Source: a virus. From it: a stretch of DNA of 64,000 nt. Below the pieces are notes generated by a model that saw only the letters and a program-made list of their open reading frames with translations, was not told the DNA's origin and ran no database searches. Each line of letters begins with the position of its first letter. The stretch's first letter is position 1. Positions 9,827 through 62,239 of this stretch are shown piece after piece. The DNA lies in the IMG/VR virus record IMGVR_UViG_3300027749_000055, positions 49,660 through 113,659 of that record; one strand, 5' to 3'. The position numbers and the translations under genes were made by a program.

Positions 9827-10846
9827 TTAGATAATCGCTGTCCAGAAGTAGCCCAAGTCCTTTGCAACGACCTTGTTGTCGAAGGCGATTTCAGCCTCAA
9901 CACGGTCAGCCTTCAACTCTTCCATACGGAAGCGTGAAACGCCGACAGTCGTTCCCAGACCGCCCGACACACCCGTCCACATAAACGAGTAGCCAGCCGA
10001 GGGGGTCATCAGACCAGGGTTCGGAGCCGTGTAGCAAAGCAGAGCCGCACCCGCACCACCGTTGGTGGCGACGAAGTTGTAGGTCTGCGAGTTGCTGCCT
10101 TCCTTACCCGTGTTCACAACCGACTTGGCGACCAGCACACGGTCTACTCCGAAGAGTTGAGCGAGCAGGTCTTCCGTGACGATTGCGCCCGCTTGCGTAT
10201 ACTTGTAGCGGTCTACGAGCAGCGGGTGGTTCTTCAGGACTTGGAACACCTTGTAGCCAAGGACGAGCGTGTTCGGCTCGTAGCCGGTGTTCTGCAGGAC
10301 GATTGCCTTGGCGACTTCCACGTCCACGATAGGGTTCGACTTGTAAGTCGTCGGGGCAGCCTCGTAGTCAGACCAAGCGTAGGTCTGACTAGCGGTGGGG
10401 TTGGTCGAAGCGTCGGCCACTCCCGTAATGTCGGTTGCCCAGACACCCGTTTGGAAGTAGTCCACTGCCCACTGAACCTCACGACGGAGAAGGAGACGCT
10501 GAGTAACAAACTGCGTAGCCTCCATATCGGGGTTCAAGGGGTTGTCGGCGTTCGCACGGGTCTGGTCGCCAATGTCCTTGTGGAAGGCAAACACGTCAGT
10601 CTGATAGGTGTCCGTGGTCAGACCGTAGCCGGAACCAGCCGAAGCAGTGCCGTCAGCACGACGCTGAGCCTCGTCACGGAACCAATCGTCCTTCGTGTAT
10701 TTGAAGTAGAGGTTCGACTTCTTGTCCACAGGGATAGTCGGGAAGACCTTATCCGCAATGAAGTTGTTGGTGTTCTGCAAATAAGCAACCGAGATGTTGG
10801 TCAGGATTGCGTCAATGTGAACGTTGTTTACGTTGGGTTGTGGCAT
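9827..10846 (-). CDS. major capsid protein
   Basis: The 339-residue protein opens 'NVHIDAILTNISVAYLQN' and continues 'FIADKVFPTIPVDKKSN' and 'YFKYTKDDWFRDEAQRRADG'. It ends with 'FDNKVVAKDLGYFWTAII'. This is the layout of HK97-fold coat proteins of the group often annotated as major capsid protein E-like: N-arm, E-loop with 'W.RDEAQ', long spine helix region, C-terminal A-domain. No long N-terminal delta domain is present, consistent with a separate assembly protein upstream (11622-12380). It follows the decoration gene by 20 bp and is followed by a terminator. Confidence 0.85.
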   Translation of the reverse strand: MPQPNVNNVHIDAILTNISVAYLQNTNNFIADKVFPTIPVDKKSNLYFKYTKDDWFRDEAQRRADGTASAGSGYGLTTDTYQTDVFAFHKDIGDQTRANADNPLNPDMEATQFVTQRLLLRREVQWAVDYFQTGVWATDITGVADASTNPTASQTYAWSDYEAAPTTYKSNPIVDVEVAKAIVLQNTGYEPNTLVLGYKVFQVLKNHPLLVDRYKYTQAGAIVTEDLLAQLFGVDRVLVAKSVVNTGKEGSNSQTYNFVATNGGAGAALLCYTAPNPGLMTPSAGYSFMWTGVSGGLGTTVGVSRFRMEELKADRVEAEIAFDNKVVAKDLGYFWTAII

Positions 10847-11621: not shown

Positions 11622-12380
11622 TTATCGTGCCTTCTCGTTCAGGTATTGAACGTAGAGTTTGGGGTTAGCCTGCGAAGCGGCAAGAAGCGCAGCCTCGTAG
11701 GAAGCCGACGTGCCAGAAGCGACGGCAGCCTTAGCGATTCCGTCCAACTTAGCGAAAGCGTCGTCAGCGGCAGGTGCGCTGTCTGAGCCAACTTCAGTGA
11801 AAACGGCGTTTGTGACCAGCAACGAGTTAGCCGAGTCAAGAGCCTTGACGATTTCGTTAGCCAGAACAGCGTCCGACTCCGAAAGACGACGAAGCGCAGG
11901 GCCAACAATCGTAGGGTCAATGTTGAGTTGCGACCACTCGGCAGCCTTGATTACGGCAGCCTCATCAGCACGGGCTTCACGCTCGTTGATGAGGGCTTGC
12001 TCGCTCGCAGCAGCCTTGCGGAGAGCCGCCTCAGCAGTTGCCTTGCTGTCATTCAACATTTTCTTGATGACGCTCGGCATTGCCTTGACGATATCCGCCT
12101 CGTTCGCACTCTCAGGAATCACGACCATTGACGGACGTGGAGAGGTGAAAGACATTTGGAAATCCTCCAAGTTAGTAGGGGTTGGTTGTGCTTTGAAAAC
12201 TCGCTTCGTCGTCTCGACGGGGGCTTGCTTCTTTAAGCGCAGTTCGTCAAGAACTGCTTGAATTTCGGAGGACGTGTTAGCAGACGACTTCATTACAACC
12301 CAACCTTCGTGGAGGTGTGCGGGGTGGTCTACCCCACTCGTCTCCTTGATGTTGAGTTTTTGCAACTTACGTCGTGCCAC
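11622..12380 (-). CDS. capsid assembly / scaffold-like protein
   Basis: The GTG at 12380 is chosen because AGGAGAAC lies just upstream. The N-terminus 'KLNIKETSGVDHPAHLHEGWVVMKS' matches the 'VD.PAH...GW.VMK' head seen at the start of actinophage scaffold and XkdF-type proteins. Residues 60-250 are mostly helical, Ala/Glu/Lys-rich ('SKATAEAALRKAAASEQALINEREARADEAAVI'-type heptads), typical of scaffolds. It is three bases from the decoration gene and upstream of the coat gene, the usual place for scaffold. No protease motif is visible here; the protease is at 30346. Confidence 0.7.
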   Translation of the reverse strand: MARRKLQKLNIKETSGVDHPAHLHEGWVVMKSSANTSSEIQAVLDELRLKKQAPVETTKRVFKAQPTPTNLEDFQMSFTSPRPSMVVIPESANEADIVKAMPSVIKKMLNDSKATAEAALRKAAASEQALINEREARADEAAVIKAAEWSQLNIDPTIVGPALRRLSESDAVLANEIVKALDSANSLLVTNAVFTEVGSDSAPAADDAFAKLDGIAKAAVASGTSASYEAALLAASQANPKLYVQYLNEKAR

Positions 12381-12504
12381 TTGTTCTCCTAGAACTAGCA
12401 ACCTTTGAGTTATCTCGAAGGTCTTGACTACTAGAAGCGTAAGTGACGTTTTGGAAAAGTCAAGGCGTGTGAGTGTGTGCGCCCGAATTCGTTATTTTCT
12501 ATGA

Positions 12505-17368: not shown

Positions 17369-20300
17369 TTACTCAGCCACCGTTTCGTAGTTCCATTTGT
17401 CCCTACCGCCCAATAAGACTATCTCACGCTCACTATAGCAACCCAACCCCGTTTCAGCACAGGAAAAGACTCGGCTAGCGGGCGCAACGCCGGAGAGAAC
17501 CATACCTTTATAGTCACTCCCTTGGGTCGAGAAAGTGCCGTCGGCAAACTTTTGGGCAACAATTGAGTCATACGAGAACGAACTCAGGGGACGGGTGGCG
17601 ATTTCGGGGAATCCGCCAGCACCCGTGATTTCATTGAATTCGTCTTCGAAAAATTCCATACCTCGATACAGCGGGACTTGGGTAATACCGTTCTTGGCAA
17701 GGTAGCCCTGCGTCTCGTCGTATTGAGCACGGAGAAAGGCTCGGTAGAGGTCGCCATTTTTGCTGTATTCGTCGTCTACTTTGTTGCCGTCTTCACCTTG
17801 CCATTCAGCCGTTTCCTTCAGACCAAACTCTTCGGCGGCGGCTTTTTGAATCGCCAAATTCTTTGTGGTTTCGTTTGAACCAATTGCCCACAAACTTACA
17901 AGTGCGCTTGCGCCAAGTTCGGCAAGCCGTTGCTTGATTCGAGGGTCGTCGCCGTGAACAACCTCAGTGCCATTTTCAACCGCTTGGTCTGCGTCGGATT
18001 CTTTCAAAAGATAGGGTGCTTCAAAACCTTCGTCCCCAATGCTTCTAAAGGTGTAGAGGGAGTCGTGGTCGAAATAAACCTGTGGCACAACATCAAAGTC
18101 GCCCGCAATAAAACCCTGTTCCAATAAATAAAACCGAGGGCAAGCCGTAGCAAGGCGGTCAGCCCATTTGTCCCCCATACGAGCGGCAATATTTTCCGCC
18201 ACTTTTTGCTTCAGTTCGGGCGCAACTTGTTCTGAATCTTCAGGTTCCATTGAGTCACGGTCAAAATCTTCGCCCTCGATTGCCACGCCAAGTTTGTCTA
18301 CGAGTGGAACCATTGCGTCGTAGGAATCAACGTGTGGGTCAATTTTCCCAAGGGATTCCCTGTGTCGTCCTGAACCAGGCCCGCCCTTGCGGACAGAAAT
18401 CAACTTTGTGTAGTCAGGATTACTTGTAGATTTGGTGATAAACACTTTGTTAGGCTTTCGCCAGACGGTATCTTCAAAACCCATAACACGGTTGTATTTG
18501 GGGTCTAGGCTTTCAGCAAAGTTCTTTCCCGCTTGTGAAGCAAAGCCACCGTGCAAAATTAAGGGCTTGTCCCCCATCATTTTTATTTGGTTTCGCATAG
18601 CGTCCACCATTTTGCGAGCAATACCCTGACCACGCACTTTTTCATCGGTCTGAATGTGCCAGATTTTCACCACAGGGCCTGCGATGTTTTTGTCACCCCA
18701 GTCATAGTGCGCTTTCGCTTGACCGATGATTACACCGTCTTTGTTGCGAACTTCCATACCAATACGGTCATCATTACCGTATTTTCCGTCACTAAGCAAT
18801 CCTTCGTCAGCCGTGATTTTGTATTCATTGCCATTCTCGTCTGTGAAGGTTCGTTCGCCCTCACCCGTCTTAGTCCACTGATTACCCTCAGGCTTACGAC
18901 CCGAACCAGGCCCGCCCTTACCAATCTCGACGGGGCTATGACCCTCTCCTTGGTCGGCGGTGAAGCGAGACTGCTTGGCTTCTTGGCGATTTGATTCCGC
19001 CTTGGCTTCTAATTGCGTCTTTTCACTACCCTGCGCTTGCTTGGCGGCTGTCGAGTAAAGACGAGCGGCTGATTCGTGAGCAAAAGCGGCTGAATCCCAC
19101 TTCTCCTTACGGCGCAAGTCCCACGCCCGTTGCTCAGCAGTTTGAGCGGCTTGCAAAGATTTGGAAACGTTTTGGCTGTTTTTTTTGACTTCTTTTGCTT
19201 GGTCTTCTTCAAATTGTGCGACAATTGCTAGGTAGTAAAGACGAGAGGCTTCGGTTTCGTTGCCATTTTCTTGCTCACGCTTGGCTTCTTCACGCAGTTC
19301 CGAGGCGGTCAGGTCGCCGTCTTTTGACCGAGCGGCTATTTTTGCAACATCAGCGATTTTACTATCGTCAAGAACCGTAATGTAGTTGGCGTTTGGAACT
19401 ACTGCCGATAGGTCGTAGACAAGGCTGTGGTTCTCATCACTATAAGTGCCTTCGCCTTCGTTCACATAGTAATAACCATTTTTGGCGTTGTTTCTGGTAA
19501 TTTGCCCACGCATACGGCTATTGGCTTGGTCATCACCAACGGGCGACCACACGCTGTTTTTCATACTTCCCGTAATAATCACGGGGGTAATATCGGGCTT
19601 GCTGTCCATAGCGATAGGGGTTCCGTCGGAGTAAACCGCTTCGCCTTGGTGGTCGGCGGGGTAGTGGGGAATTTGCGCCCAATCGTCCTCAGCACCGTAG
19701 CCAGCACCCGTTGAGACGATAAGCGTCTTGCCGTATTCCTCGGTTCCGTCCCAATCCTTACCGTCAGCCCGTCTGCCAATTCGTGCTTCAAGTGCGTCCT
19801 TTGCGGCTTTGTAGCCCCCAACGTGAACGCCGTAAGAGGCTTGTTTGAGTCCGATTTTGCCATTTGGAGAGCCGTGCCAAAAAACAGCGTGTGATTCTCC
19901 GTCGGGGGTGGTAATCATTTCGGGAAGGGCGTAAGTCAATTCGCCCCAGAGTCCGCCCAAAAATTTTCCGTATCGCTTTGCGCCATTTTCTTTGTGCCTA
20001 CCGCTGCCCGGCCCACCCTTTTCCACCTTGTCCAACTGAGCAACAACTTTCTTTGCCCACGAATAACCAGCGTCTCCGCCCCACGCATACCAAGCAACCT
20101 TGCCTGGGCTGGGTTCGTTCCAATGCGGGCTGTCCTTGTCGCCTTGGTGACGGTCAAAATACGCCTTCATACGGCGAATGGTGGTTTCCGATACTGACGT
20201 ACCACGGGCGAGGTCTGAGGCTCGCTTGCGTCCAACGGGGGTGAAGCCAGAGCCAGCCTTGCCGTCTTTGAGCCATTCCAACGCTTTTTTTCCAGCGTCT

Positions 20301-21037
20301 TGAACGCCCTGCGGGGGTGAGAACGTGTCGGATTTTTCCACGACGGCGAGGGCTTGAAACGCCTCAATCAACTTGCACAAGTTTTGGTAGAGGTTGATGA
20401 ACTTTTCTTCCATTCCCACAGATTCAAAGAAGTGGCTGAGGGTAATGATTTTGCAAAGGGTGAACTGCAAGGATTCTTCGTCTACGCCTCGGTTCCAAAG
20501 TTCCGCTACAAACTCCGGCGAAGGGGTGCGAGGACGGAAATTACACAAAGCGTGGTCAATGCCCACAATGCGCCCGTCGGAGGTAAAGATGACGTTCTTG
20601 GGTCGGCGGTCAGAGTTGGCGGTCAGGTAGTCAAAAAGACGCAGAGCGGTTCCCTGAGCGTTGTCGGGAATCTCCTTGTCTGCGTTTTTACCAGACTCGC
20701 CTTCAATGTAAGGCATAATCACCGTTGTAGCGTCCATAGAGGTAAAGAAGCAGTCTCGGACAGGTGCGTTCATTGCTTCGCCTACACGGGCAGCCAACCA
20801 CTCCTGCGTGGCAAGGAGTGGTGCGGGGTAGAAGCGACCCGTCTTATTACCAACCCAATCCTTCAGGACTTTCTCCACGCCGCCAGAGCCGTCGGCAAAA
20901 ATGACGAATTGGAAACCGTTATTTTGCTTACCCCCGAAGGTTCCCTCTAGGGGGTTGCGTCGAACTATGTTTGTATTGGTAAATGTAACAAAATTAGGCT
21001 GGAAAGTGCCGTCCACGGCTAACCCCGATTCAGCCAC
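17369..21037 (-). CDS. modular polyprotein: kinase-like, ART-like, GNAT and ADP-ribosyltransferase modules
   Basis: The 1222 residues are divided by three K-G-G-P-G-S-G-R motifs at 340, 707 and 884. Residues 1-240 resemble phosphatidylinositol/HipA-type kinases ('TANSDRRPKNVIF', 'IVGIDHALCNF'). A short helical phage domain follows ('DGKAGSGFTPVGRKRA'). Module 340-706 begins with an ART-like 'FWHGSPNGKIG...GVHVGGYKAAKDAL' and ends in long helices. Module 707-883 is a GNAT ('KIWHIQTDEKVRGQGIARKM'). Module 884-1222 is an ADP-ribosyltransferase: 'YRGMEF', 'RPLSSFSYDSIVAQKFADG', catalytic 'SEREIVLL'. Such enzymes suit proteins injected into the host or processed inside the head; that role is inferred. 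Confidence 0.8.
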   Translation of the reverse strand: MAESGLAVDGTFQPNFVTFTNTNIVRRNPLEGTFGGKQNNGFQFVIFADGSGGVEKVLKDWVGNKTGRFYPAPLLATQEWLAARVGEAMNAPVRDCFFTSMDATTVIMPYIEGESGKNADKEIPDNAQGTALRLFDYLTANSDRRPKNVIFTSDGRIVGIDHALCNFRPRTPSPEFVAELWNRGVDEESLQFTLCKIITLSHFFESVGMEEKFINLYQNLCKLIEAFQALAVVEKSDTFSPPQGVQDAGKKALEWLKDGKAGSGFTPVGRKRASDLARGTSVSETTIRRMKAYFDRHQGDKDSPHWNEPSPGKVAWYAWGGDAGYSWAKKVVAQLDKVEKGGPGSGRHKENGAKRYGKFLGGLWGELTYALPEMITTPDGESHAVFWHGSPNGKIGLKQASYGVHVGGYKAAKDALEARIGRRADGKDWDGTEEYGKTLIVSTGAGYGAEDDWAQIPHYPADHQGEAVYSDGTPIAMDSKPDITPVIITGSMKNSVWSPVGDDQANSRMRGQITRNNAKNGYYYVNEGEGTYSDENHSLVYDLSAVVPNANYITVLDDSKIADVAKIAARSKDGDLTASELREEAKREQENGNETEASRLYYLAIVAQFEEDQAKEVKKNSQNVSKSLQAAQTAEQRAWDLRRKEKWDSAAFAHESAARLYSTAAKQAQGSEKTQLEAKAESNRQEAKQSRFTADQGEGHSPVEIGKGGPGSGRKPEGNQWTKTGEGERTFTDENGNEYKITADEGLLSDGKYGNDDRIGMEVRNKDGVIIGQAKAHYDWGDKNIAGPVVKIWHIQTDEKVRGQGIARKMVDAMRNQIKMMGDKPLILHGGFASQAGKNFAESLDPKYNRVMGFEDTVWRKPNKVFITKSTSNPDYTKLISVRKGGPGSGRHRESLGKIDPHVDSYDAMVPLVDKLGVAIEGEDFDRDSMEPEDSEQVAPELKQKVAENIAARMGDKWADRLATACPRFYLLEQGFIAGDFDVVPQVYFDHDSLYTFRSIGDEGFEAPYLLKESDADQAVENGTEVVHGDDPRIKQRLAELGASALVSLWAIGSNETTKNLAIQKAAAEEFGLKETAEWQGEDGNKVDDEYSKNGDLYRAFLRAQYDETQGYLAKNGITQVPLYRGMEFFEDEFNEITGAGGFPEIATRPLSSFSYDSIVAQKFADGTFSTQGSDYKGMVLSGVAPASRVFSCAETGLGCYSEREIVLLGGRDKWNYETVAE

Positions 21038-21649: not shown

Positions 21650-23365
21650 TTAGCCGTAAACAACGTCGCCGTAGAAGACGAGTTGCCAGAAAGCGTCGTT
21701 TCCGATTGCGTCGGTGTCGTCCAGCGCACCAAGTCGTCCGGCATACTTATCGTTGTATGCAGAGTAGGCACGGGCAATGTCGCTCATATTGGCAGTCTTG
21801 ACTGCTGAGTGGTCGCCGTCGTCTCCCTTTTCGGGGTCGTCGCACTTCGCCGTGAACGTAACCTTCGACCAATCATCAGTCGGGCTGGGCTTGCCGTCTT
21901 CTCCAAGGACATTTTCTTGGGATTCGTAACCAACGGTTCCGGTGTCCTTGCCGTTCGAAATCTTGATTTCGCCAAACCAACTGCCCCAATACGACATATT
22001 GCTGCACACTCCGTCGAGCAACTCACGGGCGTTCACGGGGGTTGGAATAGTCATCTTGTCGCCATTGAAGGCGGGGGCGGCTTGACCCATTTGGCTGCTG
22101 ATACTCGGACTAGCCGTTTCGAGTTCCGCTAGGTCAAGACCTTCTTCGTCCGCAACAATCTTGATTGCGTCGTTGATTGCGTCCGACAACTTCCCAGACG
22201 ATTCAAGAAGAGACATACCGTTGTCGTCGCCCAAATATTCGTGGTCTGAGTCAGTGAGGGCGTAGTAAGGCCAATAATCAGGCATTTGCTCGTCCTGCAA
22301 GGCGGACAACTTTTCGTCAGTGTCGAAACCGGCGGCAATCAGTTCTTCGCCGTCTTGGGCTGCGCTGCCATTGGGAAGGGGTTGATACAGTTCGTGTTCA
22401 CTGCTAACCAAGTATTTTCTACCTGACGGGGCGGTAATGGTAGCCATTGTTGCGCCCGCAGGTTGAAACTCTGCCCACTGACGGTCAGGGTTTACGTCTT
22501 CGTTTATCTTCAACTTCATTCCCTTGGGGAGAGAAAATGAAGAAGCGTCTAGCGTTGCGCCCTCAGGCTTACGACCCGAACCAGGCCCGCCCTTGCGAAC
22601 CTTAGACTTGGCATACTCCGAAGGAACGTTACCTTCCCATTGTTCCGGCATTTCACTAGGGTCTGCCTTGACGAGTGACGCAATTGCCCTGTCGGTGGTT
22701 GCGTTTGCTTCCTCAGCGTTGGAAATAGCGTCGCCGTGGTCGTTTAGTGCGCCTTCTTCGTCGCCACCCTCGAACTTTTGAACGGCGGAGTTGGCGAGTT
22801 GTGAAGCCAGCGAGTGCAACTCGGCAGCCTGACCAAAGAGAGCCGAGGCACTGTTGAGGTCACGACCTGCCTGACCATTGGTGACGAGCGACCGTTGGAA
22901 CAGTTCATTCTCATTGCCCTTGCAAATGTCCGCAAGGCGGGCAGACTCGTCTGCCGCTTCCTTCAGTTCGTCGGTGTCTTGGGCGTATTGAATAGCGGTG
23001 GGCTGCATACTTGCCGACATTTGGATATCGCCCGTCGTGTATGCGCTAGGACGACGACCCGAACCAGGCCCGCCCTTAGAGACTTCCTCGTCCGGCCAGA
23101 CACCGTTCACCGGCAGAACGTAGTAGTCGTCGTAGTGGTGTTCGGAGTATTCGGGGTCGTCCTCGTCCGGCATTGGGTCGTTCTCGTAGATGTGACTCCA
23201 ACCGTCCTCGAATGAGGGGAAAGTCTTGCCACCGAAAAGGGTGTTGTTAGCCCAATCCTTGATGTGGAAAAGGGTCTTGGTGCGACCACTGCCCGGCCCG
23301 CCCTTGGTGAGCGGGAACTCCGCCTCGTTTATGAGGTTATCGGTAGTAAAGGGGTTGTAGGTCAT
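21650..23365 (-). CDS. K-G-G motif modular protein (571 aa, three motifs)
   Basis: Motifs start at residues 21, 97 and 258. The 20-residue leader begins 'MTYNPFTTDN' and ends 'EFPLT', like the leaders of the proteins at 60677 and 62240. Module 97-257 is helical and homologous to residues 21-180 of the protein at 60677 ('YTTGDIQMSASMQPTAIQY' against 'YTVNDIYMSATSLPNAIEY'). Module 258 onward is partly homologous to residues 462-608 of the protein at 57107 ('LKINEDVNPDRQWAEF' against 'LEIGNDDAKNPERQFAEH'). The last 150 residues have 'SNMSYWGSWFGEIKI', unrecognised. Probably a virion or head-associated protein. Confidence 0.75.
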   Translation of the reverse strand: MTYNPFTTDNLINEAEFPLTKGGPGSGRTKTLFHIKDWANNTLFGGKTFPSFEDGWSHIYENDPMPDEDDPEYSEHHYDDYYVLPVNGVWPDEEVSKGGPGSGRRPSAYTTGDIQMSASMQPTAIQYAQDTDELKEAADESARLADICKGNENELFQRSLVTNGQAGRDLNSASALFGQAAELHSLASQLANSAVQKFEGGDEEGALNDHGDAISNAEEANATTDRAIASLVKADPSEMPEQWEGNVPSEYAKSKVRKGGPGSGRKPEGATLDASSFSLPKGMKLKINEDVNPDRQWAEFQPAGATMATITAPSGRKYLVSSEHELYQPLPNGSAAQDGEELIAAGFDTDEKLSALQDEQMPDYWPYYALTDSDHEYLGDDNGMSLLESSGKLSDAINDAIKIVADEEGLDLAELETASPSISSQMGQAAPAFNGDKMTIPTPVNARELLDGVCSNMSYWGSWFGEIKISNGKDTGTVGYESQENVLGEDGKPSPTDDWSKVTFTAKCDDPEKGDDGDHSAVKTANMSDIARAYSAYNDKYAGRLGALDDTDAIGNDAFWQLVFYGDVVYG

Positions 23366-23374
23366 AATAAAATC

Positions 23375-24193
23375 CTATCTCACAATCTTCTTTAGTTCAG
23401 CCTTGATTTCCTTCGCCTTGTCTCCACGCCACGTCGAAGCGTTGGCGAGGAAGTAATTGACGATTGACTTTGCGGAGTCAAGTCCATACTTGTCCGTAAC
23501 GTCGTTTAGGTCGCCCATAGCGTCGAGGTAGGGCTTTGCGCCAAAGAAAACCTTGGAACCCCAATCACGGCGAATTTCTGAAGCGATTTCACTGAGGGGG
23601 CGGTGTCCCGATTGGGTCATATTTCCAGCCTCAGCAGTGCGTCCCGAACCCGGCCCACCCTTTTTGACGGACATAGCGTCGAGTTGAGCAATGGCGGAGT
23701 CAAGAGCCTTACTCATATCCTTGGAAAAATCCACCCAACTTTGAGGGGTTTCGGGGTTATCAAGACGTTCTTGTGGCGAACCCCAACGCTTGTAGTCCTC
23801 GTTTATGTCGTAAAGAAAGCCTGACCATTCTTCGGGAGTCTCAATCTTGCTCACTCGCTTGTCGTTGAGATACATATCACGGTCAGAAACAATTTCGTCA
23901 AGTTCTTCGTGGTTAAAGTTTTCCTTCAGAACGTTAGCGATAGCAACGTCCGTGGTTCCAAGGCTCTTTTCCCATTGGTTGCCACGGAACGGGTGTCCGC
24001 CCGCTTCGCCCTTTTGGAAACGCTCTGCCTTTTGGAAGAACAGTTCAAGTTCGACAGGTGAAAAAAGTTCAGACACAGCAAACGTAGACTTGTGAACCTT
24101 CGCACCACGCCGAGGGCGAGGCTTGCGAGTAGTTGAGCGTGACGACTTACGAGCCGCCTTTGCCATAAAGTCTTCTAAGCGTTCTTCGGACAC
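23375..24193 (-). CDS. modular protein with basic N-terminus and K-G-G motif (272 aa)
   Basis: The first 35 residues are Lys/Arg/Ser-rich ('RKSSRSTTRKPRPRRGAKVHK'-like), suggesting nucleic-acid contact. Near residue 61 is a second kind of tag, 'KGEAGGHPFRGNQW', and at 178 the usual K-G-G-P-G-S-G-R. The C-terminal 80 residues ('LSEIASEIRRDW', 'DAMGDLNDVTDKYG', 'NASTWRGDKAKEIKAELKKI') form a helical domain I have seen in other phage structural proteins but cannot name. The GTG start at 24193 is less certain than an ATG at 24166. Confidence 0.65.
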   Translation of the reverse strand: MSEERLEDFMAKAARKSSRSTTRKPRPRRGAKVHKSTFAVSELFSPVELELFFQKAERFQKGEAGGHPFRGNQWEKSLGTTDVAIANVLKENFNHEELDEIVSDRDMYLNDKRVSKIETPEEWSGFLYDINEDYKRWGSPQERLDNPETPQSWVDFSKDMSKALDSAIAQLDAMSVKKGGPGSGRTAEAGNMTQSGHRPLSEIASEIRRDWGSKVFFGAKPYLDAMGDLNDVTDKYGLDSAKSIVNYFLANASTWRGDKAKEIKAELKKIVR

Positions 24194-24225: not shown

Positions 24226-25437
24226 CTAGGCGGACATAAAGCCGGTGTCGCCCATAACCCGACTCGTTTCACCACGGGTGGGGCTGGTCGCTGCTTCAGC
24301 GGAAATTCCAGCCTTCTCACGGCAAACGCCAGCCAAGTGCTTCGCACCATACGCCATATTACGAGCGTCGGCAGCCTTTTCCTTCCACTGCTCACCAAGT
24401 GCAGCGTCAGCGTCCTTGTGACCCTTGGCAGCCCATTCGAGGTGAGTGCCACCGAAACCGTGGGCGTGACCCTGAGCCAACATAAGCAACTTCGACGCTT
24501 CGTCATACTTCTCAGCAGCCTGAGCGTAAGTGTCCTTGCTCTTGGTCTTGTCGGCTTCGCTACGCAACTTGTCGGCAGAACGGAGAGCCTCACGACCAGC
24601 CTTGAAATTAGCCTCGTAGCCAGCCCCGTAGTTCTTGTTACGGGTCTTCCAGCCAACACGGACGGTCTTGCCCTCAGGAGTCTTCTCACGGGTGTTTACA
24701 AGTTCGCCTGTGTGCTGGTTGGCACGACCACCACCGTCGCCCTTGTGACGACCTGAGCGACCCTTCACGCCATACTTGGTGACGTTGATGTAGGACTGAA
24801 ATCCCGCCGACTTTTGGAAGTCACGGGTAAGAAGCGAAGAAGTGCTGAACGACTTAGAAAAATCTTCGTCCTCGTCGTAGTAGGTGTCCTCAGCCTGTGC
24901 AGGGAAACGACCCATTTGGCTTTCGTGAACCAAACCGTCGTTCAAACCTGAGCAGCACGGGCACGACGAGTCGCCGTCACCGAAGCAAAGGGGGCACATA
25001 ACCAAAACGGCTTCCTTGGCAAACTTCATTTCAATTCCTTTCGCTGCGGGCGCAGACTTAGTAATTTGGGGGGTTGATTCGCCCTTGGCAAAGTCACGCA
25101 GACCGCCAAGGATTTCCGAAGCCTTGGTGAACATTTCACCAGCCGCTTCGTGTGCCTTGTCTGCCTCACGGAAGCCAGCAAGTGCGTTGTTGTAAGCCTT
25201 CTTCAACTCGGTGGAGTTCCAAGCGTTCTTAGCCACCGCCTCGAAGTATGCGATTTCGGTAGCCTTCAGGTATTCCGTAGCCTTTTGGAGACGGAATGAG
25301 GTGTTTTCCAATTCGCCACGGGCGACCACTTCGTCACGGCTCGCTTTAGCAATTTGAGTGGCGGCGAGAACGGGGTCTGCTGAACCCTTCTGCACAAACG
25401 AGACAGTCTTGGGGGAACTGTTGGGAACCTGAATCAT
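24226..25437 (-). CDS. modular helical protein with zinc-finger and variant tag (403 aa)
   Basis: The N-terminal 120 residues are helical. Near 147-165 is 'CPLCFGDGDSSCPCCSG', a DnaJ-type C-x2-C ... C-x2-C cluster. Near 222 a divergent tag 'GVKGRSGRHKGDGGGR' stands where relatives have K-G-G-P-G-S-G-R-H. The C-terminal 150 residues hold 'AAEKYDEASKLLMLAQGHAH'-type His/Ala helices like those in the other modular proteins. It belongs to the same gene block, so a shared virion function is likely. Confidence 0.65.
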   Translation of the reverse strand: MIQVPNSSPKTVSFVQKGSADPVLAATQIAKASRDEVVARGELENTSFRLQKATEYLKATEIAYFEAVAKNAWNSTELKKAYNNALAGFREADKAHEAAGEMFTKASEILGGLRDFAKGESTPQITKSAPAAKGIEMKFAKEAVLVMCPLCFGDGDSSCPCCSGLNDGLVHESQMGRFPAQAEDTYYDEDEDFSKSFSTSSLLTRDFQKSAGFQSYINVTKYGVKGRSGRHKGDGGGRANQHTGELVNTREKTPEGKTVRVGWKTRNKNYGAGYEANFKAGREALRSADKLRSEADKTKSKDTYAQAAEKYDEASKLLMLAQGHAHGFGGTHLEWAAKGHKDADAALGEQWKEKAADARNMAYGAKHLAGVCREKAGISAEAATSPTRGETSRVMGDTGFMSA

Positions 25438-25496: not shown

Positions 25497-26657
25497 CTAG
25501 TTACCCTCTGCTTCGGAAGCGGCGTGTGAAGAGTCGGCTGCGCCGAATGAAGCACCGTCAGCGTCGTCGTGCAGGCTGTTCAAATACTCGTCTTCTTCGT
25601 CATCTGAGGTCTTCCACGCTCGACGGTGTGCCTCGGCTGCGTAGTGGTGCTCTTGAGCGGCTTCACGGTGCGCCTTGGCTACTTCCGGCTTGCCAGCAAC
25701 GTCGGCGGTCTGAGCGAGGATTTCGTGTTCCTTGGCAAGACCTTCGTGCTGTCGAGCGGCTTCGGCGGTGTAGGCGACCATTGTGTCGTCTGAGAGTTTG
25801 TCGGCTCGGTCAGCAATGTCCTTGGAAGCCTTCTTGGTGTAATCAGCGTCCTTGCCGGAGTCCTTTTTACCACCGCTGGTCTTGGACGAATTGCCCTTCG
25901 AACCCTTTGGGTAACGACCCGAACCCTCACCGCCCTTGGTGACGGAGGCTGAGGCTGACCGCATAGCGGCTGACTGCATAACGGGGGCTAGTGAGCGTGA
26001 AGCGATGGTTTGGATATAGTCGGCAACATTTTCGGCTGCGTATCGCTTTGCGTTTTCCAAAGTAGGCCCGACGGGAGTGTGTTCGAAAAACTTGCTTGGC
26101 TTCCCAGCCTCACTGACGGTGAAATAACCGCTGACGTAACCACGGGCGGGACGACCATTATCGCCAAGTGATTGCTGACTACGGTAGGTAATCGTCAAAT
26201 CGTGACCAGCAACGGCAGCACCTTGGGAGTCGCCATTCTTCATTTGGGTCAGTGAGCCAACAAAAAGTCGAATCGGGGTCATTTCGAGGATATTTGCACC
26301 CTCGGCGTGACGACCTGAACCCGCACCACCCTTGGCGACCATATATTCACCGTTGTAGATAAGGGTGGACTTGTCGTTAGCGTCCATACCAGCACCAAAC
26401 ATTGCGCCAGCGGCTTCGAGCAGTTGGGCACGGTTGGCGGGGTTCACCTCGACGGCTCGAACAAGGTCATCACGGCAGGAAAAGAACTCCGCAGAAGCGG
26501 TCAGCATAAGGTTGCTCGCCTCACGGATTTCACCATTGGCGTAAGCGGCTTCGGCAAACTTCATCAACGACGCACCGAGTTCAGCCTTCTTCTGAGCGTT
26601 AGCAAGCACCGAGTTCAGGCTGGCTGCGCCGTGATTCTTATTGACATTCTTCATCAT
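25497..26657 (-). CDS. K-G-G motif modular protein (386 aa, two motifs)
   Basis: Motifs K-G-G-A-G-S-G-R-H at residue 109 and K-G-G-E-G-S-G-R-Y at 241 split three parts. Part 1 is helical ('SLMKFAEAAYANGEIREASNLM'-like). Part 2 is a beta-rich domain ('PIRLFVGSLTQMKNG', 'TITYRSQQSLG'). Part 3 is a His/Ala helical module ('RQHEGLAKEHEILAQT', 'AHREAAQEHHYAAEAHRRA') with an acidic tail. No enzyme motif is seen. It is 6 bp from the gene upstream. Confidence 0.7.
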   Translation of the reverse strand: MMKNVNKNHGAASLNSVLANAQKKAELGASLMKFAEAAYANGEIREASNLMLTASAEFFSCRDDLVRAVEVNPANRAQLLEAAGAMFGAGMDANDKSTLIYNGEYMVAKGGAGSGRHAEGANILEMTPIRLFVGSLTQMKNGDSQGAAVAGHDLTITYRSQQSLGDNGRPARGYVSGYFTVSEAGKPSKFFEHTPVGPTLENAKRYAAENVADYIQTIASRSLAPVMQSAAMRSASASVTKGGEGSGRYPKGSKGNSSKTSGGKKDSGKDADYTKKASKDIADRADKLSDDTMVAYTAEAARQHEGLAKEHEILAQTADVAGKPEVAKAHREAAQEHHYAAEAHRRAWKTSDDEEDEYLNSLHDDADGASFGAADSSHAASEAEGN

Positions 26658-26663
26658 TTTTCC

Positions 26664-27578
26664 TTACGCTTGACCGTCACGACGGACGGCTTCTTCAAAG
26701 TCTTTGTCGGCACGGGCGGGAACGCCTCGAAGGTCGGCTGCCTTGGCACTGCGCTGAACCCACGACGGGTGAAGGGTGGAAACATCACGGAGTGAAGCCG
26801 CAAGTCCACCGTGGCGAAGGTTGGCAGAACCGTGTTCCTTGATTGCTTTTTCCAAAGAAGGCAGGACTTCGGGCGATACTTTGTCTCGCATAGCCATAAG
26901 AGCCTTTTTCACGCCGACGTGTGCGGCGGCTACGTCACGGTGGTAGGCGTAAACCTCGTCCTCGTCACGCATATTGTGAGGCTTACCCAACTTGCTGTCC
27001 AAAAGAGTCTTGGCGTTCTTGTAGTTGTCGTAGCCGTGAGGGGTGCGACCAGAGCCAGGCCCACCTTTACGGAGAGCCGACTTGTGGGCGTATCCAAAGT
27101 AGCCACTCAGGTCAGCGACGGGAGGCTCGACGGTGGCGGGGGGTGCGGTGGGCATTTCACGCTCAATGAGGTCAATAAGGCTGTTGGTCACATCTGCGCT
27201 GTCTCGAAAGAGACGAGCGGTGTCGTAGTTGTCTACCATTGAGTGAAAGTATGCGTCGTTACGCATTTTGCTCACATCTTCACGCATTTCGGCAATGTGC
27301 TGGCTCAAAGGCTTCGAGTATGCCGCCTCAATGCGGTCTGCCATTGAGGTAGCAGTGCGACCAATTCGTGCATTTTGACGGCGAACCTGACCAATAATCG
27401 TGTCGCCGTATTCGGGCTTGTATCGGTTGCCGAGAACGTCGGTCTTGGGTCGCTTGCCGGTGCGGGGGGAGTCCCAATCGTTTGCCTTGGCTTCGGCGGC
27501 GATAGCACGAAGACGGGCAACCGCTTGTGCGTGTCGCCCAGAGCCAGGCCCGCCCTTAGTGAATTCGAACTTAGACAT
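26664..27578 (-). CDS. K-G-G motif modular protein (304 aa, two motifs)
   Basis: The ATG at 27578, after AAGGATAATT, is preferred to an upstream TTG-type frame. This leaves only a 7-residue leader 'MSKFEFT' before the first motif at residue 8. The second motif at 171 is preceded by 'HKSALR', matching the K-S-x-(V/L)-R context seen before other internal motifs. Both modules are helical and basic, with no known domain. The short leader shows that the motif itself, not a folded N-domain, is the conserved element. Confidence 0.7.
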   Translation of the reverse strand: MSKFEFTKGGPGSGRHAQAVARLRAIAAEAKANDWDSPRTGKRPKTDVLGNRYKPEYGDTIIGQVRRQNARIGRTATSMADRIEAAYSKPLSQHIAEMREDVSKMRNDAYFHSMVDNYDTARLFRDSADVTNSLIDLIEREMPTAPPATVEPPVADLSGYFGYAHKSALRKGGPGSGRTPHGYDNYKNAKTLLDSKLGKPHNMRDEDEVYAYHRDVAAAHVGVKKALMAMRDKVSPEVLPSLEKAIKEHGSANLRHGGLAASLRDVSTLHPSWVQRSAKAADLRGVPARADKDFEEAVRRDGQA

Positions 27579-27580
27579 AA

Positions 27581-28039
27581 TTATCCTTCCAAAGAAACAG
27601 AGAGTTGCCACGCCCACTTGGAGTGAGCGTCAATTCGGTCTGCCAAAAAGTTAGCAATGCCTTGCTCGTTGAGCGATGTTGCCATATCAAAAGCGTCCTT
27701 CAGGCTTTCCAAAACGCCTTCATTTGTGCGAAGAAGGTCGTCCACAAGGTTCTGGGCAGTGAAATCGTCTACGGGGCTGTTGTCCACCGAAGAAAAGGCG
27801 GTGAGCGCAGAAAACGTAAAGGGTGCAAAAACACCGACCTTGCGAATGTTCTCCGCTAAGGGGTCAATGCTGTCGTAAACGTCCTCGTAGATTTCCTCAA
27901 ACTTGCTGTGCCACTGCGGGAAGTCACCACCGACCACGTTCCAATGGAAGCCGTGGACACGGTGATACATAATCGTCACATTGGCTAAGCAGGTGCTTAG
28001 CAAGTCCCCAAGGGGTGCGCTCTCCTTACGAATACGCAT
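27581..28039 (-). CDS. Dps-like ferritin
   Basis: The 152-residue protein has the Dps pattern 'LANVTIMYHRVHGFHWNVVG' with the ferroxidase His, 'FPQWHSKFEEIYEDVYDSIDPLAENIR' with the D-x3-D/E ligands, and a C-terminal 'FLADRIDAHSKWAWQLS' helix. Dps proteins form 12-mers that oxidise iron and some bind DNA. It is embedded between two K-G-G motif genes (3-bp gaps) but lacks the motif. It might protect DNA in the capsid or infected cell from Fenton damage; that is inferred. Confidence 0.85.
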   Translation of the reverse strand: MRIRKESAPLGDLLSTCLANVTIMYHRVHGFHWNVVGGDFPQWHSKFEEIYEDVYDSIDPLAENIRKVGVFAPFTFSALTAFSSVDNSPVDDFTAQNLVDDLLRTNEGVLESLKDAFDMATSLNEQGIANFLADRIDAHSKWAWQLSVSLEG

Positions 28040-28041
28040 TT

Positions 28042-29973
28042 TTACGCCGAACGAGGGCGACGAATCACTGCGCCTTCACGCAGAGTCCTGTCGTTGATTG
28101 CCTGACGGAAAGCGTGTGCTACTTCGCTCGCAGATTCCGCAGAACGAATGGTTTTTTCAGCGACGTTGGCTGCCTTGTCTGCCTTGTCTGCAAGACGCTG
28201 ACCATCAACCGAATCGGGGTCGCCACCCTTGCGGAGAAAGCGAGAGTAGTCATTAGCGGTCTTAGAAGCCTCACGCATTGCACGACGACCCATATGCGTT
28301 GCTTCGTAGACCTTGCCAGCGGCTTCACCCAAGTTGGTGTTCGTCATTGAGTAGAAACGCTTGGGCGACTGCAGAAGGTAGGTAGCCATAGTGCCGTGGA
28401 ACGAGGCTTCGTGCAGGTGTTCTTCAGCCTTTCCATACTCTCCACGGTTCACCAATGCACGGGCGGCTGCAATGTGGGCGGCTGCGGCTTCGAGGTGCTG
28501 ACCGTGGTTGAAGTTTTCAGTGCCAGGCCGAATGTCAAAAGTTACGCCTTGACCGTGAGCCGAGGTCTTGCGGTTGCCACGGAAGCGCAACTTTTCGTTA
28601 CTGCCTTCTTCCCTGTGGCGACCTGAGCCCTCACCGCCCTTACGCACCTTCGACTTGTTGAAAACAATGGCGGGTTCGCCCATTTCGTTTTCAATGGTGA
28701 GGCACTGAACGGCAAGGTCACGGAGACGAGCGGCCTCACGGGAGGCTGCGCCAATAGCGTCACCGTCACCGAAGGGCTTGAACTCGCTAACCAAAAAGTC
28801 GTAGAAGGTGGCGGACTGACGGAAGACCGTAGCGGCGGCTACGAACATTCCACGCTCAACCAGAGCGTCAGCCTCGTCTTCCAATGCAACAGCCGTATCA
28901 ACGAGGTCTTGCACATTTGATTTGTTGATTTTTATTTGTCCTCCTACGGACTTAGTTATCGAGAATTCGAGGTGAACTGCGTCGTCGTCACCGACAACGG
29001 CGGTCACGCCGCCACGGCCAAAATAAGATTGAACTGCGTCGGAGAGTTCCTGACCATTGGGAATGTCTCTATCCCAGAAGCCAGTACCGTGACCGTTGGC
29101 GGTCAAAACAATGTCGTCACCAATGTTTTCGTCGGGCAGACCCGATTGTTCAAGGGCGGCAATGTTGTCGCCAACAAAGTCAAAAATTGCGTCGCCCAAA
29201 GCGTTAGCGTCTCCACGGTCAAAGTCGTCAATACTGTAAGTTCCGTCCAAGAACCCACTCCATTCGTCGCCGTCGTCGGGCATAGTCTCAGTGGCAAGAA
29301 GCGCACCAAGCGCATTGCGAGTAATAACTTGCAGGTCAAAGACACGTCCGTCCAAAGTCTTCAACTTGGGGAGATTGCCGTCCAAAAAGGTCGTGGTTCT
29401 TTCGGGGTGTCGTCCTGAGCCAGGCCCGCCTTTGGCAACTACTTTGCTGTCGGGGTCGTTGTATCCAAGGAAGAGTGAGCCGCCAATGTAAACCTTGTCG
29501 CTTTCATTTTTTTGCGACAACTTTTCTGCGTCGAGAGTGGCAACGGTGGCTGCTTTGGAAGCCGCTGAAACTTGGCTAGAGGTTGCCTTGGGTTTGTCGA
29601 AGCCAGCGAGAGCCTGCGCCTCTGGTGTGGTGGGTTGTGCCCACTCGCCCATTTTGTTAGCGATAGTAGCCGCCGCCTTGTAGTGAGCGTCAGCGGCGGC
29701 GAGGTTTGCCCGAACTGCACGGTCATCACCAGCCGTTGCTTGTGCAAGTTGCTTGTGCAGGTCAGCCATAATTTCGTGCGCTTCAATAGCGGCGTTCGCT
29801 TGGTCGGGAGTAAGGTTCTTGGCATTTTCCAGAACAAGGTTAGAGAGACGAACTGCCTCGCCGCCCAAGGTTTCCTTGGTGTGAGTTGAACCCTTGGGGT
29901 AGCGACCTGAACCTGCACCGCCCTTGGCAACGTTGAGCCATTGCTCAACCGTTTTAGTGAAACTGTCCGTCAT
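28042..29973 (-). CDS. K-G-G motif modular protein (643 aa, three motifs)
   Basis: Motifs start at residues 17, 181 and 445. The leader 'MTDSFTKTVEQWLNVA' is an amphipathic helix similar to the leaders at 59959 and 60619. Module 17-180 is a helical His/Ala bundle ('AIEAHEIMADLHKQLAQ', 'AADAHYKAAATI'). Module 181-444 begins with a beta-rich region ('FDLQVITRNALGALLATE'), then helices. Module 445-643 is again helical ('EAAAAHIAAARALVNRGEYG'). The third motif is preceded by 'NKSKVR'. No catalytic residues are recognised. Confidence 0.7.
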   Translation of the reverse strand: MTDSFTKTVEQWLNVAKGGAGSGRYPKGSTHTKETLGGEAVRLSNLVLENAKNLTPDQANAAIEAHEIMADLHKQLAQATAGDDRAVRANLAAADAHYKAAATIANKMGEWAQPTTPEAQALAGFDKPKATSSQVSAASKAATVATLDAEKLSQKNESDKVYIGGSLFLGYNDPDSKVVAKGGPGSGRHPERTTTFLDGNLPKLKTLDGRVFDLQVITRNALGALLATETMPDDGDEWSGFLDGTYSIDDFDRGDANALGDAIFDFVGDNIAALEQSGLPDENIGDDIVLTANGHGTGFWDRDIPNGQELSDAVQSYFGRGGVTAVVGDDDAVHLEFSITKSVGGQIKINKSNVQDLVDTAVALEDEADALVERGMFVAAATVFRQSATFYDFLVSEFKPFGDGDAIGAASREAARLRDLAVQCLTIENEMGEPAIVFNKSKVRKGGEGSGRHREEGSNEKLRFRGNRKTSAHGQGVTFDIRPGTENFNHGQHLEAAAAHIAAARALVNRGEYGKAEEHLHEASFHGTMATYLLQSPKRFYSMTNTNLGEAAGKVYEATHMGRRAMREASKTANDYSRFLRKGGDPDSVDGQRLADKADKAANVAEKTIRSAESASEVAHAFRQAINDRTLREGAVIRRPRSA

Positions 29974-30345: not shown

Positions 30346-31848
30346 TTAGTTGTCTCCTAAGAATGTCTTGTAGGGCGATTCTTCCACGGGAAGGTCGGCT
30401 TCGACACCTGAGCCCGTGCCACCGATTGAGTAGCCACGGAGTTTGCCTTCCTTCACAAGTTCCCAAGCCCACGGTTCCCACTGAACACCGAGGAAAACGG
30501 TTCCGGCGGGGAATGAAACCTGCTTGATTTCACCACTGTTTGCCTGAAGCATTGGAACGGTGACTTCGTGCGGCCAAGTGAGGGCTTCGAGCCATTCTCC
30601 CGCCACAATGTCCACGTTGTGCTGAAGGCGAATCTGCCTGTCTCCGTTGCGGACGTAGCCCCAGAGTGCTTCTTGGAGTTCCTGCGGGTCAGTCCACTCG
30701 CCGTGAGCGTCTGAGCGATAAGGCACATACCACGGGCCCATTGTGTAGCGTTGCTCGTCCGACTTGCGAATTTGATTGGGAATTAACTCGGATTTTTGCA
30801 GAAGGTTTGCGTCCTGCACAACCTCAGGGTTTACTTCTTCAATAACAGTCATAGTTTCCGGCACAAACTTGGGCTTGCGACGGAAACTGCCGACAAATGA
30901 GCCCACTCCGCCACCGTTGCTCGGTGCGTCAATGTGGACGCTGGCAACGTCGGGGTTATTTTTGCGGTAGGGACGGCGGGGAGCGTCCTCGGAATCGTCC
31001 TCGTCACTTTCCATATCTTCTTCTTCTTGGTCTTCGGGAGAGCCAAAAATGTCCTCGTCTTCTTCGTCACGGTCACGACCAAAGCCAAAGAACTTGTTGT
31101 ATTCGACCTCAGAAGTGGCTTCCGCCTCTTCCAAAACTTCAACCATATTCAGACGACACCAACCGTCAGCGTCGCACTGAACGGCAACCCATTGGCAACC
31201 ATTGAGAGTGCCCGCCACGCAGTTTGAGCAAGTCAAACCACGGTCACGGAACGGTGAAATCGAGACGTAGGACACGTCAGTTGTGGGGAAACGACCCAGA
31301 TTTTGAACCGTCTCGTCCAAATCCTCGGCAAGTTCAACCTGCCACGGGTCAAGACCGTCCTTCCAATTCGAACCCAACATTTCACTATCGTCAGAAGACG
31401 AAGAATCGCTGGAATCTGAACTGTCGCTGGACGAAGAAGAATCACTGCTGTCCGAGTATTCGCTTGAACTGTCGTCGTATTCGGAAGAATCTTCCATAGA
31501 ACTGTAGTCATCTGAGTCATCTTCGGTGTCTTCTTGCATAGCCGAGAGAATGGCTGCGACGGTAGCGGGGTTTAGCGTCACCTGAACGTCCGTGGAAGAA
31601 TCGTCTTCAACGTCGGCAGGAACGGGGCTGGGCGTGAATGAAAACGGGAAGCCGACAGCCTTCTTGCTAGGAACCATTTTGAGGGAAACCTCTCCGTTTT
31701 TTTCCACGGCGGTCAATGTTGCGGTTTCGTAACCCTCGTTGAGTAGTCGTGCGGCGTATTCCCGCACCTCCCCGTCAATGGATTTGTTGATAATAACGCT
31801 GGCGAGTTCAACTTCTTCTATCACGTCAATAATCTTTGAGTTGTCCAC
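30346..31848 (-). CDS. XkdF-like (S78_2) putative prohead protease with acidic insert
   Basis: The GTG at 31848 is chosen because GGGAGAA lies just upstream. The C-terminal half has 'RYTMGPWYVPYRSDAHGEWTD', 'ELQEALWGYV', 'IRLQHNVDI' (candidate catalytic His), 'GTVFLGVQWEPWAWELVKEG' and 'LRGYSIGGTG' (candidate Ser), the order of the XkdF/S78_2 group. Unusually, residues 100-160 are almost pure Ser/Asp/Glu, and a second acidic stretch lies at about 260-300. Between them a Cys-rich patch ('CSNCVAGTLNGCQW', 'CDADGWC') may bind metal. It lies between portal and K-G-G motif genes, so those proteins are candidate substrates. Confidence 0.7.
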   Translation of the reverse strand: MDNSKIIDVIEEVELASVIINKSIDGEVREYAARLLNEGYETATLTAVEKNGEVSLKMVPSKKAVGFPFSFTPSPVPADVEDDSSTDVQVTLNPATVAAILSAMQEDTEDDSDDYSSMEDSSEYDDSSSEYSDSSDSSSSSDSSDSSDSSSSDDSEMLGSNWKDGLDPWQVELAEDLDETVQNLGRFPTTDVSYVSISPFRDRGLTCSNCVAGTLNGCQWVAVQCDADGWCRLNMVEVLEEAEATSEVEYNKFFGFGRDRDEEDEDIFGSPEDQEEEDMESDEDDSEDAPRRPYRKNNPDVASVHIDAPSNGGGVGSFVGSFRRKPKFVPETMTVIEEVNPEVVQDANLLQKSELIPNQIRKSDEQRYTMGPWYVPYRSDAHGEWTDPQELQEALWGYVRNGDRQIRLQHNVDIVAGEWLEALTWPHEVTVPMLQANSGEIKQVSFPAGTVFLGVQWEPWAWELVKEGKLRGYSIGGTGSGVEADLPVEESPYKTFLGDN

Positions 31849-32009
31849 AACTTCTCCCACTATGCGTTTACTAAAATGCTACTGCGTGTTTCCAAAACAA
31901 ACGGTCTATGCCCGTGGTTGCCGTGCCTTTAGAGCGGTAGCGGGAGAGACACGGCGAAGGGTTGTGCGATTCTTCTTGGGTTGTGCGCTTACTTTACGAA
32001 AACGTAGGG

Positions 32010-56062: not shown

Positions 56063-57097
56063 TTACTTGTAGACGTGGTGCGACAACTTCTTGTCGGGGA
56101 ACGTTCCGTATGCCTTGCCGGTAGCGGGGTCGGTAATTCCAACAATGTTTCCCTTGCCCATAAACCTGTTGGTCTGGTCGTGCTGGAAGGAAACAACGTC
56201 GCCAATCTTTTCGTCGCTGCCTTGACGCTCGATTACACGGGTGAAGATAGTCCCGTTGGGTCGGTAGCCCTGAACAACAATGTGCTGCTCTGCGGGGCTG
56301 AATCCGTAAGGCTCGTTCTTACCCGTGCCCTCTTCGAGAGTGCGGGGGTTCACCATTCCGTCGGGGAGGGTGGGGTTGCCACGGTAGTAAAAACTACGAG
56401 GGCCGGTGTGGTATTCGGGGGAACCCGTGCGGAAGAACTCCCCACGCTCGGCGGAGGTCAGGTCTTCTTCGGCAACGTCGGTCATTCGAGTAACGGTTGC
56501 GGTGCGCCCAGAACCAGGCCCGCCCTTCGTCACCGTTGAATCCTCGACGTAATAGGGGAAGGTGTTACCTTCGGGGTGTTCCGAAACGTAGCGAGCAATA
56601 CGGCTTGCGGTGGCGGCGTCGGCACTGGCGGCAAAAGCCTTAATCATTTCACTATCGGAAGGGTTTGCCAATCGTGTAACTTCCTTCCAAGCGTCTGCGG
56701 CGTCTAGGTGCGCCGCAGCAGCAGCGTAGTGAGCCTTACTTGCGTCGGTTTGGAACATTTCACCTGTGTAGTCAAAGTTGCGTGACGGGGCATACAAGTT
56801 TGCCCCTTCGATAGCGTGTGCCTTTAGAATTTCAGTGTGTTCCCTAGCCATATCCGACGCTTCGGCTCGGATTTCCGCAGGGGTCTGGTCTTCAAGACCA
56901 ATGTTGTCGTGGGCGTTTTCAAGGATAGCCGCAGAGTGGTCGGCAAGAACCGAGGGGACGGAAGGCTCTTCACCCGAAGCGAGACGAGAGACTTCCCACG
57001 TCGTCAGATTTTCGGCGTAGTGGTTGGAGTGATTGGCGTGGCGACCTGAGCCCTGTCCGCCCTTTGCAATTTGTCCGGTTCCTTGTGAAAAGTCCAT
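56063..57097 (-). CDS. K-G-G motif modular protein (344 aa, two motifs)
   Basis: The leader is 11 residues ('MDFSQGTGQIA') before K-G-G-Q-G-S-G-R-H at 12; the second motif is at 191. Module 12-190 is a His/Ala helical bundle ('AAAAHLDAADAWKEV', 'DMAREHTEILKAHAIEG'). Module 191-344 is beta-rich ('AEQHIVVQGYRPNGTIFTRV', 'KIGDVVSFQHDQTNRFMGKG') and unrecognised. Resembles the set at 17-30 kb, so a shared role is expected. Confidence 0.7.
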   Translation of the reverse strand: MDFSQGTGQIAKGGQGSGRHANHSNHYAENLTTWEVSRLASGEEPSVPSVLADHSAAILENAHDNIGLEDQTPAEIRAEASDMAREHTEILKAHAIEGANLYAPSRNFDYTGEMFQTDASKAHYAAAAAHLDAADAWKEVTRLANPSDSEMIKAFAASADAATASRIARYVSEHPEGNTFPYYVEDSTVTKGGPGSGRTATVTRMTDVAEEDLTSAERGEFFRTGSPEYHTGPRSFYYRGNPTLPDGMVNPRTLEEGTGKNEPYGFSPAEQHIVVQGYRPNGTIFTRVIERQGSDEKIGDVVSFQHDQTNRFMGKGNIVGITDPATGKAYGTFPDKKLSHHVYK

Positions 57098-57106
57098 TGT
57101 GGTTCC

Positions 57107-59959: not shown

Positions 59960-59971
59960 TATTTTTCCTTT

Positions 59972-60619: not shown

Positions 60620-60676
60620 TTGGAACTCCTAGTTCTTCTGTCGCTAAAGTTACCAGCGGTTTACGATTTTTCCGTT

Positions 60677-62224: not shown

Positions 62225-62239
62225 TTCACTACTCTCTCT

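What the first reader, a model, noticed from the sequence alone, without database searches (positions are those of the whole stretch)
17369..21037. A 1222-residue chain carrying kinase-like, ART, acetyltransferase and ART-like modules
Motifs at residues 340, 707 and 884 separate a HipA/PI-kinase-like region, an ART-like region, a GNAT and an ADP-ribosyltransferase with 'YRGM', 'SSFSYDS' and 'SEREI'. Several protein-modifying enzymes in one chain resemble injected phage effectors such as T4 Alt. If the motif is cleaved, one gene would deliver four effectors.
Basis: partly seen in the sequence, partly recalled or inferred. Interest (0 to 1): 0.72.

Follow-up and report, generated by a model that had tools for sequence, protein, structure and literature searches.

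The report
Phage effector chain punctuated by motifs
A virus of bacteria encodes one long protein that strings together a kinase, an acetyltransferase and an ADP-ribosyltransferase-like enzyme, separated by a short repeated peptide that looks like a cutting site for the virus's own head-maturation protease, so one gene may load several host-reprogramming enzymes into the virus particle.

Summary
The 1222-aa ORF is real, but on the minus strand (21037 to 17369). KGGPGSGR occurs at K340, K707 and K884, always between domains. Three enzyme modules are supported: a HipA/CtkA/PI4K-type kinase, a GNAT, and a C-terminal ART-like domain with R-S-ExE conserved in relatives. The claimed middle 'ART-like' segment is not supported (no homologue, pLDDT mostly under 50).

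The surprise is the motif. It occurs 40 times in 18 ORFs of this 113.7-kb phage record, often shortly behind an N-terminal leader. In relatives, modules are reshuffled between motif sites. Across 139 sites the residue two before K is V/I/L/F/M in 134, although no search selected for it. A sister motif (GHxFxGN) shows the same upstream hydrophobic-x-K in 199 of 213 sites, against 35% background. This resembles T4's L/I-x-E prohead site with K for E. Motif phages usually carry an XkdF-type head protease (28 of 42 records; 2 of 45 random records).

Best reading: mosaic head cargo, cut by the head protease after K and injected. Cutting, packaging and injection are inferred, not shown.

The parts
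17369..21037 (-). The multi-module ORF, 1222 aa (P0001)
20372..20992 (-). Kinase module, residues about 16-222 (HipA/CtkA/PI4K-like), K56, D143, N148, D161
20027..20329 (-). phrog_2859 module, residues about 237-337, head-associated in other phages
19997..20020 (-). KGGPGSGR motif at K340, predicted cut after K
19367..20011 (-). Orphan segment, residues 343-557, fold unresolved
18947..19366 (-). Helical module, residues about 558-697, its last ~80 residues recur in other motif proteins
18896..18919 (-). KGGPGSGR motif at K707
18428..18880 (-). GNAT acetyltransferase module, residues about 720-870, RGQGIA at 802-807
18365..18388 (-). KGGPGSGR motif at K884
17381..18064 (-). ART-like module, residues about 992-1219; R1125, SSFS from about 1152, E1203 and E1205
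21650..23365 (-). Sister motif protein, 3 motifs, first behind a 22-residue leader
23375..24193 (-). Sister motif protein, 1 motif plus the variant FQKGEAGGHPFRGNQW
24226..25437 (-). Sister protein with a diverged site (INVTKYGVKGRSGRHKGD)
25497..26657 (-). Sister motif protein, 2 motifs
26664..27617 (-). Sister motif protein, 2 motifs
28042..29973 (-). Sister motif protein, 3 motifs, leader MTDSFTKTVEQWLNVA
30346..31860 (-). XkdF-type (Peptidase_S78_2) head protease, 504 aa; candidate cutter, H414 and S478
32010..33680 (-). Portal protein
11622..12401 (-). Probable scaffold (by position, next to the capsid gene; phrog_13547, function unknown)
   Evidence: function by position only
9827..10846 (-). 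Major capsid protein
56063..62977 (-). Second cluster of five motif proteins, 13 motifs

Best explanation
The ORF is one member of a family of mosaic head-cargo proteins in a tailed phage, probably of an actinobacterium. It is made as one chain. The peptide [VILFM]-x-K-GGxGSG marks module borders, and leader-like or phrog_2859 segments before it probably help bring the chain into the procapsid. The phage's XkdF-type head protease most likely cuts after the K, releasing four pieces: kinase with phrog_2859, a piece with a helical module, a GNAT and an ART. The pieces stay in the head and enter the host with the DNA, where they modify host proteins early in infection. Shown here: modules, conserved catalytic residues, motif copies and the hydrophobic-x-K rule, module reshuffling at motif sites, protease co-occurrence. 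Inferred: cutting, which protease cuts, packaging, injection and targets.
For: 40 motif copies in 18 ORFs of one genome. Hydrophobic at K-2 in 134 of 139 sites and 199 of 213 sister sites versus 152 of 435 background KG. Leaders of roughly 15-40 residues before first motifs in dozens of ORFs. No motif inside a recognised domain, 0 of 11. Reshuffled kinase/GNAT/ART modules in L045 and L019. Genes lie between head protease and capsid genes. PF14550 in 28 of 42 motif records versus 2 of 45 random ones, S78 in two more; motif inside the protease ORF in G004 and G011. phrog_2859 is fused to portal/MuF or protease-capsid ORFs elsewhere. Precedents: T4 gp21 L/I-x-E sites and targeting propeptides (PMC9026906).
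Against: No proteomics. This ORF itself lacks an N-terminal leader plus motif. In this genome the motif is absent from the protease, probable scaffold and capsid proteins. Conservation extends far downstream of the K (GGxGSGRHxE), more than known prohead sites need. Many motif records are related, so co-occurrence counts are not independent; 14 of 42 lack PF14550, mostly or partly because they are fragments. Some XkdF phages (Ottawa, L038) lack the motif.
Confidence: 0.55

Rival explanations
1. The motif is not cut. It is a docking or packaging tag with a flexible hinge; the chain is loaded and injected whole, and the conserved GGxGSGRHxE or GHxFxGNQ half binds scaffold, capsid or DNA.
For: Strong conservation downstream of K; motifs lie in low-confidence linkers; N4 virion RNA polymerase is packaged unprocessed although large (PMC5512222).
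Against: A hinge or tag does not explain the fixed hydrophobic at K-2 across two different downstream motifs or the link with a head protease.
Confidence: 0.25
2. The chain is cut, but by another enzyme such as a zincin domain encoded in a sister motif protein (HELGH in L001:5082-7871), before packaging or in the new host, as proposed for polyvalent proteins.
For: A zincin-like HELGH motif lies in a sister motif protein; MPTases split polyvalent proteins (PMC5512222).
Against: The zincin is in one module of one sister protein, and its presence across motif phages was not examined, whereas XkdF-type proteases recur.
Confidence: 0.12
3. The repeats are recombination seams kept by gene shuffling, with no role at the protein level; the enzymes act inside the infected cell after ordinary expression.
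For: Modules do recombine at the motif.
Against: Codons vary between copies while the peptide is kept; gene position and the head-fused phrog_2859 module point to the head.
Confidence: 0.06

Closest known systems
Polyvalent proteins of phages and conjugative elements (Iyer et al. 2017, PMC5512222)
   Same: Several host-modifying enzyme domains (ART, kinase, GNAT) in one phage chain, predicted to be packaged and injected, strongly mosaic
   Different: Those ARTs are H-Y-D type and the kinases lack the C-lobe; splitting is ascribed mostly to built-in zincin domains. Here the ART signature is R-S-E, the kinase keeps its C-lobe, no zincin is in the chain, and a short punctuation peptide separates the modules
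T4 Alt and internal proteins with capsid targeting sequences, cut by gp21 (PMC9026906)
   Same: Head cargo including an ART; short N-terminal propeptide; hydrophobic-x-residue site before the cut
   Different: Site ends in E in T4, K here; T4 cuts off end propeptides, while here sites separate enzymes; no profile similarity to Alt, ModA or ModB
MuF polymorphic toxins (Jamet et al. 2017, PMC5576092)
   Same: Effector modules, ARTs among them, carried by phage head proteins; related ART and phrog_2859 modules occur in head-morphogenesis proteins
   Different: This chain has no MuF domain; it is a separate cargo gene
SPN3US prohead protease gp245 substrates (PMC10052503)
   Same: Many head proteins cut by one prohead protease, some with propeptides of 20-24 residues
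   Different: There propeptides are removed; here cutting would separate enzymes

Membership tests
Polyvalent proteins | Two or more effector domains in one phage or mobile-element chain | tested here: met
   Kinase, GNAT and ART-like modules
Polyvalent proteins | ART of the H-Y-D (Tox-ART-HYD2) type | tested here: not met
   R, SSFS and ExE conserved instead
Polyvalent proteins | Kinase lacking the C-terminal subdomain | tested here: not met
   Model aligns with whole CtkA over residues 25-233
Polyvalent proteins | Built-in zincin peptidase (in about a third of them) | tested here: not met
   No peptidase family match in the chain
Polyvalent proteins | Packaged in the virion and injected | not testable with these tools
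   Needs virion proteomics
T4-type CTS head cargo | Short N-terminal propeptide with cut site | tested here: inconclusive
   Present in many sister proteins, not at the N-terminus of this ORF
T4-type CTS head cargo | L/I-x-E cleavage site | tested here: not met
   Site is [VILFM]-x-K
ADP-ribosyltransferase, R-S-E type | Catalytic R, S-x-S and E-x-E in order | tested here: met
   YRG, SSFS, EREI; R in 18 of 18, E-x-E in 17 of 18
ADP-ribosyltransferase, R-S-E type | Significant match to an ART family or fold | tested here: inconclusive
   11 of 18 relatives match PF07357 DRAT, best E 1.5e-5, but the window domain itself does not; no ART chain among structural matches of the long model
HipA/CtkA/PI4K-like kinase | Kinase fold with K, D, N, D catalytic residues | tested here: met
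   CtkA Z 14.3 over 197 residues at 3.4 A; K56, D143, N148, D161
GNAT acetyltransferase | GNAT family score over cut-off, acetyl-CoA loop and fold | tested here: met
   PF00583 23.6 bits versus cut-off 20.7; RGQGIA; Foldseek top hits all GNATs
MuF polymorphic toxin | N-terminal MuF domain | tested here: not met
   No match at E up to 1

The most novel reading that the evidence does not exclude
A phage polyprotein cargo system: one head protease cuts dozens of hydrophobic-x-K|G sites in a set of mosaic chains inside the procapsid, so a virion carries a large, swappable set of host-modifying enzymes, and new modules are gained by recombination between punctuation peptides.
Probability: 0.42. Interest if true: 0.82.

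Novelty: new variant of a known kind. Interest (0 to 1): 0.63.

Why it matters
If true, a simple peptide rule (hydrophobic-x-K-G followed by GxGSG or GHxFxGN) would reveal phage head cargo and its module borders directly in metagenomes, where most such genes are annotated as unknown. It would also show tailed phages using polyprotein-style processing to deliver many effectors, and would give a readable substrate motif for XkdF-type head proteases.

Tried and rejected
Full-length search in IMG/VR: no relatives. tblastn of the motif peptide in phage records: no match, probably masked as low complexity. Literature search for GGPGSGR and GGPGSG: no relevant paper in the library. Middle segment as an ART: no convincing family or PDB match, no homologue except for its helical end, unresolved model; a deeper alignment might still reveal a fold. 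Profile link to T4 ARTs: none. One motif pattern was written out of frame and found nothing; corrected. The FGH form of the motif in bacterial genomes gave only one hit. MIT-domain likeness of the helical part (Z 12) is not used, because helical bundles often score that high. No ART chain appeared in the structure lists of the 880-residue model; for a long multidomain model that says nothing about the fold. Two mixed alignments (A3, A4) misplaced fragments and were dropped.

Full report
The observation. The ORF is real and lies on the minus strand, 21037 to 17369, 1222 aa, GTG start. The window is bases 49660-113659 of a 113,659-base virus record. Two WhiB-type genes suggest an actinobacterial host. 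Transcribed on the minus strand, the order is portal (32010-33680), XkdF-type head protease (30346-31860), then the motif proteins with a ferritin/Dps-like gene among them, and further on a probable scaffold and the major capsid protein (9827-10846).

Modules. Residues about 16-222 form a kinase of the HipA/CtkA/PI4K branch. The AF2 model of residues 1-342 has mean pLDDT 91.4; the best structural matches are CtkA (Z 14.3, 197 residues aligned, 3.4 A), PI4KIIalpha (Z 12.9, 200 residues, 4.0 A) and HipT (Z 12.3, 181 residues, 3.6 A). K56, N148 and D161 are invariant in 25 relatives and D143 nearly so. Residues 232-341 match phrog_2859. That module also occurs in the portal/MuF ORF of HRTV-4, at the head of a protease-capsid ORF in Roseobacter phage CRP-406, and in an ORF annotated 'capsid maturation protease' in phage DSL-LC01. 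Residues 343-557 are an orphan without a confident model. Residues 558-697 are helical, and the last ~80 recur in other motif proteins. Residues 720-870 are a GNAT. Residues 992-1219 are ART-like: YRG, SSFS and ExE are kept in relatives (R in 18 of 18, ExE in 17 of 18) and 11 of 18 relatives match the DRAT family. No structural match to an ART was obtained, so this assignment rests on sequence.

The motif. KGGxGSG occurs 40 times in 18 ORFs of this genome. Among 139 non-redundant copies in the fetched loci, the residue two before K is V/I/L/F/M in 134. No search pattern specified that position. Many relatives instead carry KG[DE]xxGHxFxGNQ. Among 213 GHxFxGN sites with a KG upstream, 199 have the same hydrophobic residue, against 152 of 435 KG dipeptides outside motifs. 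So hydrophobic-x-K-G is the constant part and the following half varies. First motifs often follow a leader of roughly 15-40 residues of three recurring types: PFSTxxLLxxxSNYPV, xIxxWLxxA and NPFHIDxLDPIGKSASxIL. These tests ignore relatedness among the phages, so their p-values overstate significance, but the effect is large.

Shuffling. In L045 the order is kinase, motif, GNAT, motif, ART, without the phrog_2859 module and without the middle segment; L045 carries phrog_2859 in the neighbouring ORF. L019 has kinase plus phrog_2859 before a GHEFRGNQH variant. In phages with another or no detectable capsid relative (G030), an ART directly follows a leader-like start and motif (L095, L128). No motif falls inside a recognised domain (0 of 11).

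The protease. PF14550 is found in 28 of 42 motif-bearing records and in 2 of 45 records drawn by an unrelated pattern. Two further motif records carry the related S78 family. Seven of the remaining twelve hold the same capsid protein; at least some are fragments. Records without a detectable relative of this capsid protein (G008, G015, G016, G035) also carry PF14550. In G004 and G011 the motif lies inside the protease ORF. The window's protease keeps its histidine and serine. This fits a substrate motif for the head protease but does not prove it.

Interpretation. T4 cuts head proteins after L/I-x-E, uses short targeting propeptides, and packages the ART Alt (PMC9026906). Iyer et al. described phage polyvalent proteins with ARTs, kinases and GNATs, mostly split by their own zincin domains (PMC5512222). 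The present chain works like these but uses a punctuation peptide and probably the head protease. I put the full reading (packaged, and cut by the head protease) at about 0.55; packaging in some form is likelier than that. The injected-effector role is inferred from these parallels.

Limits. The ART fold was not modelled alone, the middle segment remains unassigned, and all functional steps from cleavage onward lack direct evidence.

Noticed in passing
27581-28039 (-): Ferritin/Dps-like gene (PF00210, E 2.1e-15) sits among the motif proteins and lacks the motif; a possible DNA-binding head protein.
   Followed up: no
L001:5082-7871 (-) and L001:7882-9618 (-): Sister motif proteins outside the window carry a zincin-like HELGH segment with a DUF3626 match, and a pentapeptide-repeat domain.
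   Followed up: partly
L001:2215-5232 (-): Paralogous motif chain with four motifs, GNAT-like segments and a C-terminal ART 40% identical to this one.
   Followed up: partly
21019-21486 (-); L001:15752-16813 (-): Leader-like peptides also occur at C-termini (SFDEWLNRG at the end of the ORF just upstream; FFTDDLLRSLSNYPRR), suggesting a targeting peptide at either end.
   Followed up: partly
L119:3242-7852 (+), L137:181-6390 (-): Related phages carry chains of 1537 and 2070 aa; the first holds three kinase copies, the second a kinase and an ART.
   Followed up: no
L037 (phage DSL-LC01) 832-2565, 3797-13666, 14776-16611, 19147-19719: Another lake actinophage has RDxxG[RKQ]F peptides in its head-region proteins, including one of 3290 aa; perhaps a different border motif.
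   Followed up: partly
42117-43121 (-): Match to the Mom DNA-modification family (PF25680, E 2.1e-13).
   Followed up: no
30346-31860 (-): The protease active site reads GYSIGGTGSG, itself a GGxGSG string without the preceding K; meaning unknown.
   Followed up: no
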